DNA of 10,557 nt from JAUXIQ01 sp030620925 [NCBI: Nitrospinota bacterium] (GTDB taxonomy: Bacteria; JAUXIQ01): NCBI GenBank assembly GCA_030620925.1, contig JAUXIQ010000034.1, positions 1 to 10,557 of the forward strand, given 5' to 3'. Positions 401-9,579 of this stretch are shown piece by piece. A program made the translations under genes and the position numbers. The notes beneath the pieces are model-generated. The model was not told where the DNA came from. It worked only from the letters and a program-made list of their open reading frames with translations, and searched no databases. The number at the start of each line of letters is the position of its first letter. The first letter of the stretch is position 1.

Positions 401-952
401 TCATACACCGGGTTTTATTTTGTACCGAAACTTTATGAAGTATTGCAGGCCGGATATGCTGCTCAATACCATCACCGCCCAGAGGGCCACCGTTCCCGCC
501 TGTTGAAAGCTGAGACCGTAAACGTTCCAATTGAGTATCAGCAACAGTATGGCCGCCACCTGGAAGACCATTTTGAGTTTACCCAGATCCTCAGCCTGAA
601 TAATGAATCCCTGAGCGGCACCCACCGTCCGCAGGCCGGTGACGAGGATTTCCCGCCCTATGATGACCGCCACTATCCAGCCGCCGGCTCTACCCGTGGA
701 AACCAGCGGTATGAGACACCCGGCCACCAGCAGTTTGTCGGCCACGGGGTCAAGAAGTTTACCCAGCGACGTTACCTCTTTTTTGGCCCTCGCCAGGTAT
801 CCGTCGAGCCAGTCGGAAAAAGAGGCTAGGGCAAAGATGATGGCCGCTGCAAGGTCTGCGGCGGGGGTGGAAAGGGTCAGCAACACCACGATGGGCGGGA
901 CCATGAACAGCCTCAAGACAGTTATTTTGGTAGGGAGGTTTAAACCAGACAT
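401..952 (-). CDS. pgsA: CDP-diacylglycerol--glycerol-3-phosphate 3-phosphatidyltransferase (PGP synthase)
   Basis: This membrane enzyme joins CDP-diacylglycerol and glycerol-3-phosphate to give phosphatidylglycerol phosphate, the committed step to phosphatidylglycerol. The 183-residue protein carries the full CDP-alcohol phosphatidyltransferase signature: Asp47, Asp50-Gly51, Ala54-Arg55, Gly64, Asp68 and Asp72, matching D-x2-DG-x2-AR-x8-G-x3-D-x3-D. The N-terminus (NLPTKITVLRL) is typical of PgsA, and length and helix spacing are normal for the family. The other family members (phosphatidylserine synthase, cardiolipin synthase of the same fold) are less likely given the N-terminal sequence and the plsY neighbour. 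ATG 952 is the only reasonable start before an in-frame stop, although no clear Shine-Dalgarno precedes it. The gene sits 3 nt upstream of plsY and is separated by a terminator from the lipoprotein gene before it. Confidence 0.93.
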   Translation of the reverse strand: MSGLNLPTKITVLRLFMVPPIVVLLTLSTPAADLAAAIIFALASFSDWLDGYLARAKKEVTSLGKLLDPVADKLLVAGCLIPLVSTGRAGGWIVAVIIGREILVTGLRTVGAAQGFIIQAEDLGKLKMVFQVAAILLLILNWNVYGLSFQQAGTVALWAVMVLSSISGLQYFIKFRYKIKPGV

Positions 953-1059
953 TTCGTTTTTTGAATATACAAAAGACTCTGTTTAACAAGGGCCGAGTTT
1001 TAACGGCATCTACATTCTCGGGGGCGGCAACGCGCCTCACGCTCCCCAATAAAATGGCA

Positions 1060-1089
1060 AAAGGAGATATCGCCTACGATATCTCCTTT
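1060..1089 (-). terminator. Intrinsic terminator after the repeat lipoprotein gene
   Basis: A perfect 13-bp inverted repeat (1060-1072 with 1077-1089) encloses a 4-nt loop. Read on the minus strand, the GGAGATATCG stem core is preceded by an A run and followed by TTTTGCCATTTTATT, the layout of a Rho-independent terminator. It lies about 40 nt past the stop codon of the gene at 1128-2372 and before pgsA. On the plus strand the T run is only three bases, so minus-strand function is favoured. The rest of the 953-1127 spacer shows no gene, and I could not identify a convincing pgsA promoter in it. Confidence 0.8.
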
Positions 1090-1127
1090 CACCGGATTAA
1101 AAATCATCTTCAAATGTGGTCATTATC

Positions 1128-2372
1128 CTATTTAGTGGGCTTTTTCGCCATGGCGATTGCCTTGAACGCTGAACTCCCCGCCCTTTCCGCCAACTCTCTG
1201 GCCATGATTCCCCTGTCTCTGGCGGTAGCGTAATTCCCCTTACGCAGAGCTCTTTTAGCCCTTTGGTAAACTGATCTAGCCTGAGAAAGCTGCGTCCTGG
1301 CGGCGTTAAGTTCTGCCTGCCCGGCTCTTTCCATTTGAGAAGCTTTGGCCACCATCGCTTCAGCGGAGGTGATGGCCGCTCCTGCCGCCGATACTTCAAA
1401 TTCCGCGTCTTTTTTGGATACCTTTGATACAGGAGGTTTCTTCGCTTTCTGCAACGCTGCAAAAGCTACAGAAGCGGCCGCTTCAGCTTTTCCCCGTGCC
1501 TTACCCGCCAGATGTATAGCGCTTTTGTAACTTTCGGACTCTATCATCGACCTGGCATTTGAGGCCATCCTCTCGGCGGTTTCCAGCAACATTTCCGCTT
1601 CGCCGATATCCTTGGCAGCGGCTTTCTCCTTTTTGGCGCTGGCGATCATCCCTTTGGCGGAGGTGATGGCCGCTTCTGCGGCGGCCAGCTCGAAATCAGC
1701 CTCACGCTTGGCGGCGGCTTTAGCTTTGGCGGCTTTTTTGGCTTCGTCTGCTTTCGCTTTTGCTCCAGTTTTAGCTGCCTGTAATGCGGCGAAGGCTGCA
1801 GAACCAGCCGCCTCGGCTTTCTCCCGCGCTTTACCCGCCAGATGTATAGCGCTGACGTAACTTTCCGATTCTATCATCGACTTTGCATTGGACGCCATAC
1901 TTTCAGCGGCTTCCAGCAGGTTTTCCGCCTGGGCGATATCCTTGGCAGCGGCTTTCCCCTTTTTGGCGTTGGCGATCATCCCTTTGGCGCTGGTGATAGC
2001 CGCTCCTGCTGCTGCCAGTTCGAAGTCAGCCTCACGCTTGGCAGCGGCTCTGGCTTTTGCGTCTTTTTTATTCTCTACGGCAGCCTTCTCTGCAAGTTCA
2101 GCCAGCGCTATGGCTTCCCTTGCCGCGATCTCGGCTTCCTTGTATTTGCGTTTCTCGGCGAAGGTCAGGGCTTTATTGAGCGCGTCCTGTGCCTTCTGGT
2201 ACTGTTCTTTAGCATATACATCAGCCCCCGCGGCTTTAGCCCTTTCCAGGGCAGCCTGTGCTTCTGCTATGAGCTGGGTCGGAGGAGCGGCACATCCCGC
2301 CAGTAACGATAAAACCAGGAATCCGGAAAAAATGGAAATAAGAATGCTCTTTTTACAACCTTGTTTTTTCAC
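1128..2372 (-). CDS. Repeat-containing Ala/Lys-rich lipoprotein (DUF4398-like helical units)
   Basis: The 414-residue protein is predicted to be exported and lipid-anchored: a KK-rich N-terminus, a hydrophobic core at about 9-24 and a lipobox LAGC with Cys27. The mature part is almost wholly helical and made of repeats. A first unit (about 36-100, with AALERAKAAGADVYA) resembles the DUF4398 type of periplasmic helical hairpin. Two nearly identical 90-residue units follow at 109-198 and 219-308, exactly 110 residues apart. A diverged fourth unit (about 321-404) ends the protein. The linkers are rich in Ala and Lys. The start is GTG 2372, supported by a strong AAGGAGGT ribosome binding site 8 nt upstream; a sigma70-like promoter lies at 2432-2460 and a terminator at 1060-1089, so it is probably monocistronic. 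The function is unknown. A periplasmic structural, spacer or envelope-binding role is possible but is only inference. Confidence 0.85.
   Translation of the reverse strand: MKKQGCKKSILISIFSGFLVLSLLAGCAAPPTQLIAEAQAALERAKAAGADVYAKEQYQKAQDALNKALTFAEKRKYKEAEIAAREAIALAELAEKAAVENKKDAKARAAAKREADFELAAAGAAITSAKGMIANAKKGKAAAKDIAQAENLLEAAESMASNAKSMIESESYVSAIHLAGKAREKAEAAGSAAFAALQAAKTGAKAKADEAKKAAKAKAAAKREADFELAAAEAAITSAKGMIASAKKEKAAAKDIGEAEMLLETAERMASNARSMIESESYKSAIHLAGKARGKAEAAASVAFAALQKAKKPPVSKVSKKDAEFEVSAAGAAITSAEAMVAKASQMERAGQAELNAARTQLSQARSVYQRAKRALRKGNYATARDRGIMARELAERAGSSAFKAIAMAKKPTK
1449..2048 (-). repeat. Two tandem 270-bp units, 330-bp period, inside the lipoprotein gene
   Basis: The DNA at 1449-1718 and 1779-2048 is a direct duplication with a 330-bp period. 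Long runs match base for base, for example the stretch starting ttacccgccagatgtatagc at 1501 and again at 1831. They encode residues 219-308 and 109-198. A third, much more diverged copy lies at about 1161-1409. The high DNA identity of the two central copies points to a recent duplication or to gene conversion between them, and the pair is a likely site of copy-number change by recombination. Confidence 0.9.
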
Positions 2373-2377
2373 TATCA

Positions 2378-2387
2378 GGACCTCCTT
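2378..2387 (-). promoter_or_regulatory. Strong ribosome binding site that fixes the GTG start of the lipoprotein
   Basis: On the minus strand this reads AAGGAGGTCC, a near-perfect match to the 16S anti-Shine-Dalgarno sequence. It is placed 8 nt (from the end of AAGGAGGT) before GTG 2372, so the GTG rather than an internal codon is the start. Confidence 0.85.
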
Positions 2388-2431
2388 TTTTTTCTCCTCT
2401 GATGAAAACTTATTTTTAAGTGCGAATTTTA

Positions 2432-2460
2432 ATGTTACTTTAAGGTTTAATCCATGTCAA
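2432..2460 (-). promoter_or_regulatory. Sigma70-type promoter for the repeat lipoprotein
   Basis: The minus strand has a consensus -35 TTGACA (2455-2460), a 17-bp spacer and a -10 TAACAT (2432-2437, four of six consensus bases). Transcription would start near 2425, leaving a roughly 50-nt leader that contains the strong ribosome binding site. The rest of 2373-2653 is an AT-rich divergent control region between this gene and holA, with no further gene seen. Confidence 0.7.
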
Positions 2461-2600
2461 GTTTATTCTGTTATCAAAATAACTACAGTTTAATAATCTC
2501 CAAGCCTATTTTTTTGCACTCCAACTTCGGAATGTTGCCTGGAGCAGGTTACTCGCTGTGGAAAAATTCCCTCAACTTAGTGCTGAAAGAGGGAGCAGAA

Positions 2601-2606
2601 TATGAT
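2601..2606 (+). promoter_or_regulatory. Possible -10 element for holA
   Basis: TATGAT matches five of six consensus -10 bases and would place a transcript start near 2613, about 40 nt before the preferred holA start. The upstream -35 (TTAGTG at 2577-2582, 18-bp spacer) is poor, so this is tentative. Confidence 0.25.
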
Positions 2607-2640
2607 ATAGATTGCCTGAAGAAGTTGTTCCTCTGCCTTT

Positions 2641-2647
2641 GAGGAGG
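2641..2647 (+). promoter_or_regulatory. Ribosome binding site that sets the holA start at GTG 2654
   Basis: GAGGAGG ends 6 nt before GTG 2654, the ideal spacing. The reading frame stays open back to a TTG at 2612, but that codon has only a poorly spaced GGGAG before it, and the extra 14 residues would not belong to the HolA fold. Confidence 0.8.
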
Positions 2648-2653
2648 CTCGCG

Positions 2654-3682
2654 GTGGATTTCGATGAATGGTTGAAGTCGTTCAAGACGGATAACATAAA
2701 ACCCCTCTACATCATAGCCGCCCAGGAGTATTTTCTCACCCGGCGGGTAGTGGAGCGGATTAAGGAAGCCCTCCGGGATGAAATCCAGGGGGAGACCAAT
2801 TACAAGCGGCTGGATGGAGTTGAGGTGGGGCCGGCTGAGCTTCTGGAAGCGGTGAACACTATCCCCTTCTTCGGAAGCAGAAGATTGATTGTTTTAGACT
2901 CCGCTTGCGCCTTCACGGACAGGCTGGGGGCCAAAGAGCGAGAGTCGCTGCGCAGCTACCTTTCCTCACCCAATCCCGCCACCACGCTGGTGATGGTCTT
3001 CGATGCCACAGACCGCAGGAAATGGACGGATAAGTACCGGAAATGGACCGTGGATATCGAGGGTCAGGGCGATTTCATAGACTGCAAGGTAATATACGAA
3101 AACCAGGTGCCGGGTTGGGTGAGGCGCATCGCCGACCACATGGGCATGAGGCTGAATCAAGACATTCTGGATTACCTCAGCCTGCATCTGGGCACAGACA
3201 TACAGACCATCTACACGGAGCTGGAAAAACTGGCGGTCCGCGCTGCAAGAGACCCTGCGATAACCCTGAAGGATGTTCAAGAGATTGTTGGAGACAGGCG
3301 GCAGAGCGATATCTTCACTTTCCAGCATCACCTGGGGGAGGGGGACACGGCGGCGGCGCTGCAGATGCTGGACAAGCTTCTGGCCGAAGGTGAAGAGGGC
3401 CATAGGCTCCTTAACAGAATGTTCTACTATTTCAAGCAACTCATGTTGATAAAAGAACTCGATGGGCGCGGCCAGGCTTCCCCCGGAAATGTGTCCAAGA
3501 TCACCAGGAACAGGCACGGAAAGACCAACCAGATGTTCATCGAGGAGTCACGAAGGTTCAGCGAGGAAGCACTGTTAAGCGTGTTCCCGCGCCTTCTGCA
3601 GGCGGATGTAGAGCTTAAGACGGGAGGCCCCAGGGCCGATGATCTCCTGCCCCCTCTGGTGGCCGAGCTCTGCAGGCGTTAG
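2654..3682 (+). CDS. holA: DNA polymerase III subunit delta
   Basis: HolA is the clamp-loader subunit that opens the beta sliding clamp so that it can be placed on primed DNA. The predicted protein has 342 residues from GTG 2654, the usual length. The family's order of segments is visible: PLYIIAAQEYFL near residue 17 in place of the P-loop strand (delta does not hydrolyse ATP), FFGSRRLIVLD near 72-82, LSSPNPATTLVMVF near 103-116, then the helical middle with LYTELEKLAVR-like spacing (here IYTELEKLAVR) followed by ITLKDVQEIVGD. The C-terminal collar domain has the GD-x-AAAL-x-MLDKLLAEGEE pattern and ends with DVELKTG. The gene stands alone on the plus strand, divergent from the lipoprotein gene and convergent with the rimI cluster. 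Identification is by overall pattern because the family is poorly conserved. Confidence 0.88.
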   Translation: MDFDEWLKSFKTDNIKPLYIIAAQEYFLTRRVVERIKEALRDEIQGETNYKRLDGVEVGPAELLEAVNTIPFFGSRRLIVLDSACAFTDRLGAKERESLRSYLSSPNPATTLVMVFDATDRRKWTDKYRKWTVDIEGQGDFIDCKVIYENQVPGWVRRIADHMGMRLNQDILDYLSLHLGTDIQTIYTELEKLAVRAARDPAITLKDVQEIVGDRRQSDIFTFQHHLGEGDTAAALQMLDKLLAEGEEGHRLLNRMFYYFKQLMLIKELDGRGQASPGNVSKITRNRHGKTNQMFIEESRRFSEEALLSVFPRLLQADVELKTGGPRADDLLPPLVAELCRR

Positions 3683-4367: not shown

Positions 4368-4828
4368 TGGAGGACCTCCAGGGTCATAATAAGGGCGTCT
4401 TCCCTGTTATCCGAATAGTATCCTTTTCGCATGCCCCCGGGCAGAAAGCCCAGTTTACTGTACATGCGCTGCGCCGCCATGTTGGATACCCTTACCTCGA
4501 GGGTAATGGTCTTTATCCCCCCCGCCCTGGCATCCTCCGTTATCTTTTGCAGCATCCTTTCCCCTATACCTTTGCGGCGGTGTTCAGGGTCCACCGCGAT
4601 GTTGGTTATGTGGGTTTCCTCCACTATCAGCCAGAAGCAGGTGTAGCCGATAATTTTGCTTTCGCCTTCTTCGGGTTCCGTCTCCACAACCATGGTTCCC
4701 GCAAAGGAGTTCAACAACTCATGCTTAAACAAGCTGTAGCTCCAGGGAGTGGGGAACGACTGGCGTTCAATTCTCAGAACCTGCTTCAGGTCTTTTTCTT
4801 CCATTTCCCTGAAATGAATGCTCGGCAT
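4364..4828 (-). CDS. rimI: Ribosomal protein S18-alanine N-acetyltransferase (GNAT family)
   Basis: RimI transfers acetyl from acetyl-CoA to the N-terminal alanine of ribosomal protein S18. The 154-residue protein has the whole GNAT fold and RimI-specific features: the N-terminal ERQSFPTPWS segment (21-30), the substrate-side strand IGYTCFWLIVEETHITNIAV, the acetyl-CoA pyrophosphate loop RRKGIG (84-89), LEVRVSN (110-116), MYSKLGF, and the typical C-terminal YYSDNREDALIM. Glu111 and Tyr123 have the same 12-residue spacing as the catalytic Glu103 and Tyr115 of the Salmonella enzyme. ATG 4828 is preceded by GGGAGGG at close spacing. RimI is often found beside tsaB/tsaD; here it instead leads a transcript with a lipoprotein and a small unknown protein. 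A different protein substrate is possible, but the family call is good. Confidence 0.88.
   Translation of the reverse strand: MPSIHFREMEEKDLKQVLRIERQSFPTPWSYSLFKHELLNSFAGTMVVETEPEEGESKIIGYTCFWLIVEETHITNIAVDPEHRRKGIGERMLQKITEDARAGGIKTITLEVRVSNMAAQRMYSKLGFLPGGMRKGYYSDNREDALIMTLEVLH
4374..4379 (-). promoter_or_regulatory. Ribosome binding site inside rimI for the overlapping TTG start
   Basis: GGAGGT on the minus strand, within the last codons of rimI, ends 6 nt before TTG 4367. It supports this unusual start codon and coupled translation of the lipoprotein. Confidence 0.75.
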
Positions 4829-4889
4829 AGGGCCCTCCCCCGCCCCTTTTTCTCCAGGTGAAGTGCGTTTAGTTTAACGGAGGAAAATA

Positions 4890-6120: not shown

Positions 6121-8994
6121 TTGCTCAAGAAGATACTCATAAAAGGGGCGAGAGAGAATAATTTAAAGAACATAGACCTTGAGCTCCCCAGAGGAAAGTT
6201 TATAGTCTTCACCGGCCTCAGCGGGTCGGGGAAATCATCCCTGGTCTTCGATACTATTTATGCGGAAGGCCACCGACGATACATCGAATCCCTCTCCACC
6301 TATGCCAGGCAGTTCCTGGAGCGCGTGGACAAACCGGATGTAGACTACATAGAAGGCATTTCACCCGCCATCGCCTTCGAACAGAAGAACCCCGTCAAAC
6401 ATTCCCGCTCCACAGTGGGCACCGCCACCGAAATTTACGACTACCTGCGTCTCCTCTTTTCCAAGGTGGGGAAAATAGAATGCCCCCGGTGCCTTAAGGA
6501 GGTTAAGGCAGACACCGTCAGTCAGTCAGTGGATACCCTCCTGCAAAAGCACCAGGAAGCCCGCATCTACATAACCTTCCCCTTTTACTATACCGACCGG
6601 GCGTCCGCACAACAGTTCCTGGATGACCTGCCGGCGCGCGGGTTTATACGGGTGATGACCGATGGGGAGGTTGGAGTCCTGAAGCCCAGAGGGCGGGAGG
6701 TTGGAGTCCTGAAGCCCGAAGGGCAAGAGGTTGGAGTCCCGCGTGTGGCGGGAAAGCCCAGAGGGCGGGAGGTCTATGATCTGTCCCAGGGCCGATACCC
6801 GCCACTCGATGGTGGTGGCCGGCTCCTGGTGGTGGTGGACAGGCTGATGGTTCGAGAGAGCGCCGCCACTCGTTTGGCCGATTCATTGGAGACCGCTTTC
6901 CGGGAGAGTAAAGGAGCGGCCGTGGTGCGCTTCGTTGACGGCCCCGACCTCCGCTTCAACCAGGAGTTCACCTGCAACGATTGCGGCAGTGAGTTCGAGC
7001 GGCCCACCCCCAACTTCTTTTCCTTCAACAGCCCCTATGGAGCATGTCAGGCCTGCGGCGGGTTCGGGAACATACTGGATTACGATCTGGACCTCATCAT
7101 CCCCGACAAAGATAAGAGCCTCGCCCAGGGCGCCATCGAGCCCTGGAACATGCGCAAATACAGATCGCATTTTCAGCGGGAATTGAGGAAACTGGCCGAG
7201 GCCAAGAAGGTGGACTTAAATAAACCCTACCGCAAGCTCAGCAAGCGCGCACAGAAGTTAGTCCTCTATGGTGCCAAGGGACATATAGGCGTGTTCCCCT
7301 TCTTTGAAAGGCTGGGAACTAAAAAATATAAGATGTTCATACGAGTGTTCACCCGGAAGTACAAATCGATCAAAGACTGCCATGAATGCGAGGGCACGAG
7401 GTTGCGGCGGGAGGCACTGTGGGTCAAGATCGGCGGCCGCACCATAGCTCAGGTCACCAGTATGACGGTGACCGAGGCCCGGGAGTTTTTCGCCGCTCTC
7501 AAGCTGTACCGTATGGAGCGTGAAATAGCCAGAGACGTACTGAAGGAAATAGAGTCCAGGCTCGAGTTCATGTACTACGTGGGCCTGGATTACCTCACCC
7601 TGGACCGCCTCACCCGCACCCTCTCCGGAGGGGAGGCCCAGCGAGTCAACCTGGCCAACCAGTTGGGAGCCAGACTCACAGGAACCCTCTACATCCTCGA
7701 TGAACCGACCGTCGGGCTGCACCCCAGGGATAACCGCCGACTGCTTGACATCCTCAAAAAACTGAGCGACGCCGGAAACACCGTCCTGGTGGTGGAGCAC
7801 GACCGGGAGGTGATCTCCACCGCCCAGCACCTGGTGGACATGGGGCCCGGCGCCGGTGCGCAGGGGGGACAGGTAGTCTACAGCGGCACCCTTAAAAATT
7901 TTCTTAAAACGTGCGATTCACTCACCGCCGGACACCTCAAAGGCAAGCTAACCATACCCCTGCCCACCACGAGGAGGGAGACCAACGGCCGGTATCTGTC
8001 CATTAAAGGCGCAAAAGAGAACAACCTCAAGGGCATCAACGTCCGCATACCCTTAAACACCTTCACCTGCGTCACTGGAGTCTCCGGAGCGGGCAAGAGC
8101 ACCCTCATCCACGATACGCTCTACAGAGCGCTCGATCGCATCTACCATCCTTCAGGGGAGCGGACGGGCATGTTCGACGTTATCACCGGCTTCGGATGGC
8201 TCCGGGACGTAGCGCTCCTGGACCAGCAGCCCATCGGCAAGACCCCCCGCTCAAACCCCATCACCTACATCAAGAGCTACGACGCGGTGCGAAAGCTCTT
8301 CTCCGAAACGCCCGGCGCCCGAAGGCAGGGTTACGAGCCTCGACATTTTTCTTTCAACGTGACGGGTGGCCGCTGCCCGGAATGCGACGGCAACGGGCAC
8401 CAGAAAATCGAGATGCACTTCATGGCCGATATATTCGTTCGCTGCGAGGAATGCCAGGGCAGCAGGTTCAAGCGGGAGGTGCTGGAAATAAAATACAAGG
8501 GCCTCAACATAAAGCAGGTGCTGGACCTGACGGTGGACCAGGCGCTGGAATTTTTCACCGGCCCCAATCAGCTTATGGAAAAGCTGGCCCTGTTTCAAGA
8601 GGTGGGTCTGGGCTATCTGAGGCTGGGGCAGCCCGCCACCACCCTCTCCGGCGGCGAGGCCCAGCGCCTGAAGATAGCCGCCGAGCTGAGCAGCAAGAAA
8701 TCCAAAGGCGTCCTCTACATCCTGGACGAGCCCACTACCGGTCTCCATTTCGAGGACGTCAAAAAACTCCTGGCCGTCTTGAACAGTCTGGTGGACCGGG
8801 GGAACACCGTCCTGGTGGTGGAGCACAACCTCGACGTAATAAAGACCGCCGATTACATCCTCGACCTGGGGCCGGAAGGAGGCGAACAGGGGGGCTACCT
8901 CGTGGCCGAAGGGACCCCCGAGCATCTGGCCCAGGTGGAGGCCTCGCATACCGGCCGCTTCCTCAAGGAACTTCTCCAAAAAGAAAGTATTTAA
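6121..8994 (+). CDS. uvrA: Excinuclease ABC subunit A, with in-frame repeat insertion
   Basis: UvrA is the damage-sensing ATPase of nucleotide excision repair; it dimerises, loads UvrB on lesions and leaves. The 957-residue protein has both ABC halves: Walker A at 32-40 (GLSGSGKSS) and 653-661 (GVSGAGKST), signatures LSGGEAQR at 501-508 and 842-849, and Walker B LDEP at 526-529 and 868-871. Two zinc modules are intact: Cys285, 288, 309, 312 and Cys752, 755, 775, 778. The usual VDQSPIGRTPRSNP segment is LDQQPIGKTPRSNP here. The TTG start is forced, because an in-frame stop lies at 6112 and no other start codon precedes the conserved N-terminus. The odd part is residues 184-217, a 34-residue repeat insertion between DGE and VYD, which accounts for much of the excess over the about 940 residues of typical UvrA. 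The stop codon overlaps the start of a flanking repeat at 8991. Damage-induced control is not evident; it probably shares the promoter at 4890. Confidence 0.97.
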   Translation: MLKKILIKGARENNLKNIDLELPRGKFIVFTGLSGSGKSSLVFDTIYAEGHRRYIESLSTYARQFLERVDKPDVDYIEGISPAIAFEQKNPVKHSRSTVGTATEIYDYLRLLFSKVGKIECPRCLKEVKADTVSQSVDTLLQKHQEARIYITFPFYYTDRASAQQFLDDLPARGFIRVMTDGEVGVLKPRGREVGVLKPEGQEVGVPRVAGKPRGREVYDLSQGRYPPLDGGGRLLVVVDRLMVRESAATRLADSLETAFRESKGAAVVRFVDGPDLRFNQEFTCNDCGSEFERPTPNFFSFNSPYGACQACGGFGNILDYDLDLIIPDKDKSLAQGAIEPWNMRKYRSHFQRELRKLAEAKKVDLNKPYRKLSKRAQKLVLYGAKGHIGVFPFFERLGTKKYKMFIRVFTRKYKSIKDCHECEGTRLRREALWVKIGGRTIAQVTSMTVTEAREFFAALKLYRMEREIARDVLKEIESRLEFMYYVGLDYLTLDRLTRTLSGGEAQRVNLANQLGARLTGTLYILDEPTVGLHPRDNRRLLDILKKLSDAGNTVLVVEHDREVISTAQHLVDMGPGAGAQGGQVVYSGTLKNFLKTCDSLTAGHLKGKLTIPLPTTRRETNGRYLSIKGAKENNLKGINVRIPLNTFTCVTGVSGAGKSTLIHDTLYRALDRIYHPSGERTGMFDVITGFGWLRDVALLDQQPIGKTPRSNPITYIKSYDAVRKLFSETPGARRQGYEPRHFSFNVTGGRCPECDGNGHQKIEMHFMADIFVRCEECQGSRFKREVLEIKYKGLNIKQVLDLTVDQALEFFTGPNQLMEKLALFQEVGLGYLRLGQPATTLSGGEAQRLKIAAELSSKKSKGVLYILDEPTTGLHFEDVKKLLAVLNSLVDRGNTVLVVEHNLDVIKTADYILDLGPEGGEQGGYLVAEGTPEHLAQVEASHTGRFLKELLQKESI
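6670..6771 (+). repeat. 102-bp in-frame insertion of three related repeat units inside uvrA
   Basis: The units lie at 6668-6697, 6698-6727 (both 30 bp) and 6728-6769 (42 bp, the same unit carrying an extra 12 bp). All begin AGGTTGGAGTCC and end with a GGGC-type half. Each unit contains a small palindrome: GCCC-aga-GGGC, GCCC-gaa-GGGC, and in the last unit TCCCGC-gtgtg-GCGGGA (6737-6753) followed by GCCC-aga-GGGC. At the protein level they encode EVGVLKP-type repeats (residues 184-217). Removing exactly 102 bp rejoins GATGGGGAG to GTCTATGAT, giving the normal UvrA reading DGEVYD. The flanks share GGGGAGG at the left and GGGAGG at the right. It looks like a palindromic element that inserted in the coding frame and was then partly duplicated. 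Confidence 0.85.
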
Positions 8995-9050
8995 CCACAA
9001 AGACACGATAATATGGAACCACGGATGAACACCGATAAGCACAGATGAAA
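8991..9050 (+). repeat. Left flanking short-repeat block (AACCACxxATGAAC type)
   Basis: TTAACCACAAAGACACGATA followed by AACCACGGATGAACACCGATAAGCACAGATGAA is a block of short degenerate units. It is the inverse of the units in the array at 9421-9560 (reverse complement AACCACAGATGAACAC). The first TTAA includes the uvrA stop codon (8992-8994). It also overlaps the start of the broken GxxExxY gene. Confidence 0.75.
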
Positions 9051-9400
9051 CCCAATTAAATCGAATTACCGAGAAGATAATCGGCTGTGCATACACTGTG
9101 AGCAATGGGTTGGGCACAGGCTTCCTGGAGAAGGTTTATGAGAATGCACCTTAAAAAGGAAGGCCTCAAGGCGGCCCAGCAGCATAGCATTCAGGTCGTT
9201 TACGACGGCATTGTCGTTGGCGATTATGTTGCGGATTTATTGGTTGAAGAACTTGTTCTTGTGGAGCTGAAAGCAGTCAAAGAGCTGGATGAGGTCCTCT
9301 CGCCCAATGCCTGAATTATTTGAAGGCATCCGATTTTCGTATTTGTCTGCTGCTGAATTTCGGCAAGCCTAAGGTTGAGATTAACCGCATCATTACTTAA
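9025..9400 (+). pseudogene. Frameshifted GxxExxY-family protein gene
   Basis: Three reading-frame segments together restore a GxxExxY protein, a small family with a PD-(D/E)xK nuclease-like core and unknown function. Segment 1 (9041-9123) encodes LNRITEKIIGCAYTVSNGLG and then GFLEKVYENA, which holds the name-giving G-x2-E-x3-Y-type motif. Segment 2 (about 9144-9314) encodes KKEGLKAAQQHSIQVVYDGI, VVGDYVADLLVEELV and then the nuclease-like VELKAVK. Segment 3 (9308-9400) encodes CLNYLKASDFRICLLLNFGK and ends PKVEINRIIT then TAA. Relative to the family, segment 1 to 2 fits an 11-nt loss and segment 2 to 3 a 1-nt loss, so segments 1 and 3 share a frame. The likely original ATG (9025, MNTDKHR) runs into TGA at 9046, a third lesion. 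Good sequence preservation suggests recent decay. Short repeats flank it on both sides. Confidence 0.85.
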
Positions 9401-9420
9401 CTTAACATTTTATAAGTATT

Positions 9421-9560
9421 TGTGTCTATCCGTGTTCATCTGTGTTCATCTGTGGTTAAATATGTTCATCCGTGGTTCCTATTCCGTGTTCATTTGTGTT
9501 CATCTGTGGTTCCTATTTCCTGTTTATCCGTGTTCATCCGTGTTCATCTGTGGTTCTAAA
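9421..9560 (+). repeat. Right flanking array of 10-bp units (TGTTCATCYG)
   Basis: At least eight exact or near-exact copies of TGTTCATCTG/TGTTCATCCG occur with a 10-bp period, in three blocks that each end TGGTT (9453, 9507, 9551; also 9473). Example units start at 9433, 9443, 9463, 9487, 9497, 9521, 9531 and 9541. Read on the minus strand the units become CAGATGAACA and AACCACAGATGAACAC, matching the left block at 8991-9050, so the two blocks bracket the pseudogene as an imperfect inverted pair. The open frame here (VFICVHLWF-type translation) is simply the translated repeat. Confidence 0.85.
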
Positions 9561-9579
9561 TCCTTTTTTCAAATTGACG

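What the first reader, a model, noticed from the sequence alone, without database searches (positions are those of the whole stretch)
6668..6771. In-frame palindromic repeat insertion inside the DNA repair gene uvrA
Seen directly: 102 bp (34 codons) made of three related units sit between codons for DGE and VYD, which are adjacent in ordinary UvrA. Frame, ATPase motifs and zinc modules are all kept, so the protein is probably functional. Units carry small palindromes (GCCC-N3-GGGC and TCCCGC-N5-GCGGGA). Established parallel: Rickettsia palindromic elements insert in frame into protein genes. Inference: this is a comparable, perhaps undescribed, coding-compatible repeat family, and the insertion falls on a tolerated surface loop of the UvrB-interaction/insertion region.
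Basis: partly seen in the sequence, partly recalled or inferred. Interest (0 to 1): 0.72.

Follow-up and report, generated by a model that had tools for sequence, protein, structure and literature searches.

The report
Repeat tract inside second UvrA gene
A DNA-repair gene carries an in-frame insert of three short repeat units whose only other copy found in this draft genome lies beside a phage gene; similar repeat insertions in this very gene are known elsewhere, so it is a curious variant rather than a new kind of thing.

Summary
A 102-bp (34-codon) tract of two 30-bp units and one 42-bp unit lies in frame in uvrA (957 codons), flanked by a 7-bp direct repeat, GGGAGGT. In the 2.5-Mb draft genome the unit was found at one other place: two tandem units before a gene on a phage-structural contig (59 of 65 bases identical). 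It was not found in 385 other genomes. The third unit carries a 17-bp palindrome that is dispersed in this genome (12 exact places, this one included). The host gene is a second UvrA paralogue. Seven of seven relatives checked have two UvrA genes, and 11 second-type relatives have variable linkers (28-75 residues) at this site, so the site was already permissive. A model places the insert as a disordered loop of the UvrB-interaction domain. Most likely a tract shared with a phage was captured at GGGAGGT by illegitimate recombination or template switching, then made chimeric with the chromosomal palindrome. It works like Rickettsia palindromic elements and intragenic REPs, which are already reported in uvrA genes, but lacks their tags, length and copy number; no REP-type transposase was found. 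New variant of a known kind.

The parts
6121..8994 (+). uvrA, second paralogue (957 codons)
   Evidence: Open frame; NCBIfam UvrA equivalogs above cut-off; Pfam UvrA_inter and UvrA_DNA-bind; tree places it with the second UvrA type of Nitrospinota/Tectomicrobia, apart from the canonical type (midpoint root)
6665..6694 (+). repeat unit 1 (30 bp), with GCCC-AGA-GGGC at 6684-6694
6695..6724 (+). repeat unit 2 (30 bp), with GCCC-GAA-GGGC at 6714-6724
6725..6766 (+). repeat unit 3 (42 bp): TG of the unit replaced by a 14-base stretch that completes the palindrome; GCCC-AGA-GGGC at 6756-6766
6737..6753 (+). palindrome TCCCGC-GTGTG-GCGGGA, identical to the core of a dispersed repeat of this genome
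   Evidence: 12 exact places and 19 with up to one mismatch in the genome, this one included in both; 0 for the pattern read backwards; contexts
6665..6671 (+). left copy of the flanking 7-bp direct repeat GGGAGGT
6767..6773 (+). right copy of the flanking 7-bp direct repeat GGGAGGT

Best explanation
The insert is a short tandem-repeat tract, not native UvrA sequence. A stretch of at least two 30-bp units, shared with a phage of the same host lineage, entered a hypervariable loop of the second UvrA gene through illegitimate recombination or template switching at the short match GGGAGGT. It was then enlarged by slippage, and one unit became chimeric with the palindrome of a dispersed chromosomal repeat by a second template switch at TCC. 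Total length stayed a multiple of three, so the protein gained 34 residues that form a flexible loop on the UvrB/TRCF-interaction domain, at a site where relatives already carry variable linkers. It most likely has little or no effect on function and is kept because it is tolerated. Shown: the units, the flanking direct repeat, the phage-side copy, the dispersed palindrome, the variable linker in relatives. Predicted: the disordered loop. Inferred: direction (phage to gene, gene to phage, or both from a third source), mechanism, that the phage belongs to this host, neutrality.
For: Own-genome searches find the unit only at C15 (uvrA) and C129; C129:5324-5388 matches at 59 of 65 bases, all six differences transitions, E 8e-20. 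C129 encodes a P22-type portal, a phage capsid protein and an SU10-type adaptor. Its closest relative found, L090 (capsid 71%), has homologues of the two downstream genes (39% and 40%) but only 14 bases before the first of them and no repeat there, against 118 bases in C129, so the tract looks inserted on the phage side too. C129 also has a GTAGGGGC...GCTCCTAC element with partial matches on other contigs of the genome, not present just behind the capsid gene of L090. 7-bp direct repeat at both ends of the uvrA insert. Third unit carries the dispersed palindrome. Linker at the site is 28-75 residues in 11 UvrA relatives, 19 in the other UvrA of this genome. AlphaFold: residues 192-215 have pLDDT under 50, while blocks of ten on both sides in the body of the domain have 83-97; the fold matches UvrA-UvrB interaction domains, 3fpn TM 0.83 by target length.
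Against: Only two places, so shared descent from an unseen third source cannot be excluded. C129 may be a wrongly binned contig (bin contamination 3.55%). Tetranucleotide profile does not settle it: C129 correlates with the window at 0.70, but fragments of the same genome gave 0.45-0.69 and fragments of other genomes 0.46-0.65. In L090 the gene upstream of the interval is not clearly the same as in C129 (best blastp E 0.025), so the interval is not strictly the same junction. The phage array is almost uniform (29 of 30 between its two units) and the uvrA units differ more (27 of 30 in the same register), which gives no clear direction. No other genome of its phylum is held, so the empty site has not been seen in a sister gene and no selection test was made.
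Confidence: 0.52

Rival explanations
1. It is a low-copy selfish element family like Rickettsia palindromic elements or REPs that transposes as a unit and is compatible with coding.
For: Two unlinked places; palindromic pieces; direct repeat at the ends that could be a target duplication; REPs in uvrA are reported from Opitutus terrae and Thioalkalivibrio (PMC3733652 section 15).
Against: Two places in 2.5 Mb; no GTAG or CGTC tag in the insert on either strand; no Y1 transposase found in the genome, in a search that finds it in 5 of 14 control genomes (genome 89% complete); no strong hairpin; open frames no better than shuffles. A draft of 445 contigs may hide further copies at contig ends.
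Confidence: 0.2
2. The linker of this second UvrA is a selected, flexible, basic tether, and repeat expansion merely supplies raw material for it.
For: Ten of 11 relatives have 8-18 K+R residues in the linker at this site, and the window linker has 10 K+R and 17 P+G of 53.
Against: The linkers share little sequence; L070 has 28 residues with 2 K+R; the repeat also sits in a phage interval before a start codon, where no such protein selection is expected.
Confidence: 0.18
3. Assembly artefact: units were multiplied or joined in error in this metagenome assembly.
For: Draft of 445 contigs; repeats are where short-read assemblies fail (general knowledge).
Against: Three units that differ from each other, exact keeping of frame, and a different version of the unit on another contig.
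Confidence: 0.08

Closest known systems
Intragenic GTAG/CGTC-tagged REPs in DNA-repair genes (Di Nocera et al. 2013, PMC3733652; abstract, section 15 and passages seen)
   Same: Short repeats with palindromes, often several units together, inside uvrA and other repair genes, adding 20-30 or more residues; the authors also think of flexible linkers or loops.
   Different: No GTAG or CGTC tag in the insert, 30-bp tandem unit without a dominant hairpin, two genomic places found, no tyrosine transposase found, second copy at a phage gene.
Rickettsia palindromic elements, RPE (passages of the reviews PMC2229807 and PMC10969869 seen)
   Same: In-frame insertion into a conserved gene, product probably tolerated.
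   Different: RPEs are 105-146 bp with long stem-loops and occur in many genes; here 30-42-bp units, two places, weak folds.
[quoted passage not shown]
   Same: Tandem, dyad-bearing coding repeats, in some taxa linked to mobile elements.
   Different: PARCEL is a 25-residue motif in ORFs without assigned function; here a 10-residue period in a conserved repair protein.
Variable-number tandem repeats formed by slippage (general knowledge)
   Same: Head-to-tail units with few differences, in frame.
   Different: The same unit on a separate phage contig and a dispersed palindrome in one unit are not explained by local slippage alone.

Membership tests
GTAG/CGTC-tagged REP superfamilies | unpaired GTAG or CGTC tag at one end | tested here: not met
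   neither tetranucleotide nor its complement in 6662-6774; degenerate tags were not tested
GTAG/CGTC-tagged REP superfamilies | stem-loop in each unit, most stems 6-9 bp (PMC3733652) | tested here: not met
   units 1 and 2 have 4-bp stems; only unit 3 has a 6-bp stem, which belongs to the dispersed palindrome
GTAG/CGTC-tagged REP superfamilies | high copy number in the genome | tested here: not met
   30-bp unit at two places; the palindrome core alone at 19 with up to one mismatch
GTAG/CGTC-tagged REP superfamilies | RAYT transposase in the genome (GTAG type; not in every species) | tested here: not met
   no PF01797 match at E 0.001 in the genome, estimated 89% complete
Rickettsia palindromic elements | 105-146-bp element with long stem-loop and terminal inverted repeats | tested here: not met
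   folds z -1.78 (DNA) and -1.32 (RNA); the repeat found at the ends is direct
Rickettsia palindromic elements | in-frame insertion in several unrelated genes | tested here: not met
   one gene only; the other place is before a start codon
Rickettsia palindromic elements | host protein still made and active | not testable with these tools
   needs expression and assay
UvrA (host gene) | UvrA domains and family scores | tested here: met
PARCEL | 25-residue amphipathic repeat | tested here: not met
   period is 30 bp, 10 residues

The most novel reading that the evidence does not exclude
A phage and its host exchange a short repeat unit that is harmless in coding sequence, and DNA-repair genes such as uvrA are preferred landing sites because the repeat enters during repair of phage-linked or stalled forks; the loop may then change how UvrA meets UvrB or TRCF.
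Probability: 0.08. Interest if true: 0.75.

Novelty: new variant of a known kind. Interest (0 to 1): 0.42.

Why it matters
It adds a case to the unexplained finding (Di Nocera et al. 2013) that small repeats sit inside DNA-repair genes, and gives it a possible route, exchange with a phage, that a closed genome or sister genomes could test. It also points to a second UvrA paralogue in Nitrospinota-like bacteria with a hypervariable linker in the UvrB-interaction domain, a natural experiment on how much that domain tolerates.

Tried and rejected
Rejected: a wide repeat family (own genome with up to 3 mismatches; 97 other genomes; 385 other genomes, which include at least most of those by handle; viral contigs with two exact patterns; phage records, with the C129 interval as query; plasmid records, with the uvrA tract as query). 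The single hits (G034, L026, two mismatches; L030) are single, partial matches inside unrelated reading sequence and were judged chance. Rejected: coding compatibility as a special property. Rejected: a known RNA family (no Rfam match in five sources). Rejected: strong hairpin element. Against my reading: the 8-mer GTAGGGGC is not more frequent than its reversed control in the genome (218 against 224), so the claim of a dispersed family rests on the 17-bp core (12 exact, 0 reversed). Tetranucleotide comparison did not discriminate own from foreign fragments and is not used as support.

Flawed steps: one search stopped with a file error and was redone. The first tree took wrong frames for L149 and L150 and was replaced, where L070 is still a long branch of odd composition. 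Alignment A2 holds a misframed row (L066) and was not used. L072 (three stops in its translation, incomplete) was dropped from the linker count: 11 of 12 relatives counted. For one search I gave 7 of the 12 relatives. The full-length AlphaFold model is poor (pLDDT 65, pTM 0.37), so the domain model is relied on. Overlap of the dispersed palindromes with open frames was only mechanical and is not used. A paper search for the bare letters GTAGGGGC gave 440 papers, 20 listed, no title on repeats, and was left.

Full report
What is there. The window holds a uvrA gene at 6121..8994 with a 102-bp insert of two 30-bp units and one 42-bp unit. The same seven bases, GGGAGGT, stand at both ends, so the edges are ambiguous over eight positions. 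In the protein the insert is residues 184-217, with a decapeptide period EVGVLKPxGx in the first two units. Family models match UvrA on both sides of it.

Is it more than chance. The lag-30 identity of the tract is 89%; the best elsewhere in the window is 59% among 10,261 positions. The unit matches a second contig at 59 of 65 bases (E 8e-20). The palindromes alone would not stand out: folds z -1.78 and -1.32, and open frames are as common in shuffled units.

Where else it occurs. In the own genome the unit was found only in uvrA and on contig C129, where two units end in GGAGGT three bases before the ATG of a 115-residue ORF. C129 carries a P22-type portal, a capsid protein and an SU10-type adaptor. 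The closest related phage contig found (L090, capsid 71% identical, one of 54 loci) has homologues of the two genes downstream (39% and 40%) but 14 bases in place of 118 in front of them; the gene on the other side is not clearly the same. Of 97 other genomes one (G034) has a single match with two mismatches, judged chance; of 385 other genomes none has the longer pattern with up to three mismatches. Viral contigs gave one partial match, judged chance, and none for the longer pattern. BLAST found nothing in phage records for the C129 interval or in plasmid records for the uvrA tract. The metagenome collection could not be searched.

The third unit. It differs from the others by a 14-base stretch in place of TG, which makes the 17-bp palindrome TCCCGCGTGTGGCGGGA. 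This 17-mer has 12 exact places in the genome, the uvrA one included, and 19 with up to one mismatch; none when read backwards. By eye, 14 of the 18 other copies shown stand right behind GTAGGGGC (7) or a variant of it with one changed base (7); 4 do not. C129 carries a 64-bp GTAGGGGC...GCTCCTAC element at 4783-4846, with partial matches on other contigs. So unit 3 looks like a chimera of two repeats. The bare 8-mer GTAGGGGC is not enriched (218 against 224 reversed).

The gene. The genome has a second UvrA on C339 (861 residues) without the insert. All 7 relatives given to (of 12 loci; Nitrospinota, Tectomicrobia and two records titled only 'bacterium') have two UvrA genes, in one of them (G391) with the canonical copy split over two frames. 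In the tree, drawn with a midpoint root, one fully supported branch parts the window gene and 11 second-type genes from C339 and 6 canonical ones. In 11 relatives of the second type the linker between the conserved glutamate and the VVVDR strand is 28-75 residues, with 8-18 K+R in ten of them and 2 in L070; in the window it is 53, or 19 without the insert, as in C339. The site is therefore permissive, and added length there is usual in this clade, although none of the 11 shows these repeats in the alignment.

Structure. The domain model (residues 110-300) has mean pLDDT 76, with 192-215 under 50, between strands 183-188 and 217-220. It matches solved UvrA-UvrB and UvrA-TRCF interaction domains. 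The full-length model agrees at 191-215 but is poor overall.

How it most likely arose. A tract of units shared with a phage of this lineage met a matching GGGAGGT in the loop; recombination or template switching inserted it, slippage and a further switch into the dispersed palindrome made the present form, and selection kept frame and tolerated the loop. Direction, mechanism and the tie of C129 to this host are inferred; the composition test did not settle the last. No Y1 transposase was found, so movement by a resident RAYT is not supported.

What is known. Di Nocera et al. 2013 (PMC3733652; abstract, section 15 and passages read) report REPs inside DNA-repair genes, including both uvrA genes of Opitutus terrae and one of Thioalkalivibrio, and weigh neutral loops against altered repair. 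RPEs were seen in two reviews (PMC2229807 and PMC10969869, passages), PARCELs in abstract and outline (PMC2996958). The present tract fails the tag, stem, copy-number and transposase features, so it is filed beside these, not among them. My searches for earlier reports were made, in an open-access library only; none of the listed titles describes this tract, but listings were capped.

Verdict. A real, repeat-derived in-frame insert; analogue of known intragenic repeats; unusual for its phage-side copy and its chimeric unit.

Noticed in passing
L073 (C339), UvrA 590-3172 minus strand: The other UvrA of this genome seems, by eye, to lack a large part of the UvrA DNA-binding (insertion) domain: LIMP is followed almost at once by the CxxC of the next module. 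Deletion or assembly error not settled.
   Followed up: no
relatives: Seven of seven Nitrospinota/Tectomicrobia-like genomes checked carry two UvrA genes; the second type has a variable, mostly basic linker in the UvrB-interaction domain.
   Followed up: partly
window 9011-9570: Cluster of direct and inverted repeats of the TTCATCYGTGTTCATCTGTGGTT type behind uvrA.
   Followed up: no
window 1128-2372, minus strand: Predicted lipoprotein-like ORF with long internal repeats (299 nt, 83% identical, 330 nt apart).
   Followed up: no
L034 4783-4846: 64-bp GTAGGGGC...GCTCCTAC inverted-repeat element between the phage capsid gene and the next ORF, not present just behind the capsid gene of L090.
   Followed up: partly
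own genome: Dispersed palindrome with core TCCCGCGTGTGGCGGGA, mostly behind GTAGGGGC-like ends; resembles GTAG-tagged REPs, but no Y1 transposase was found.
   Followed up: partly
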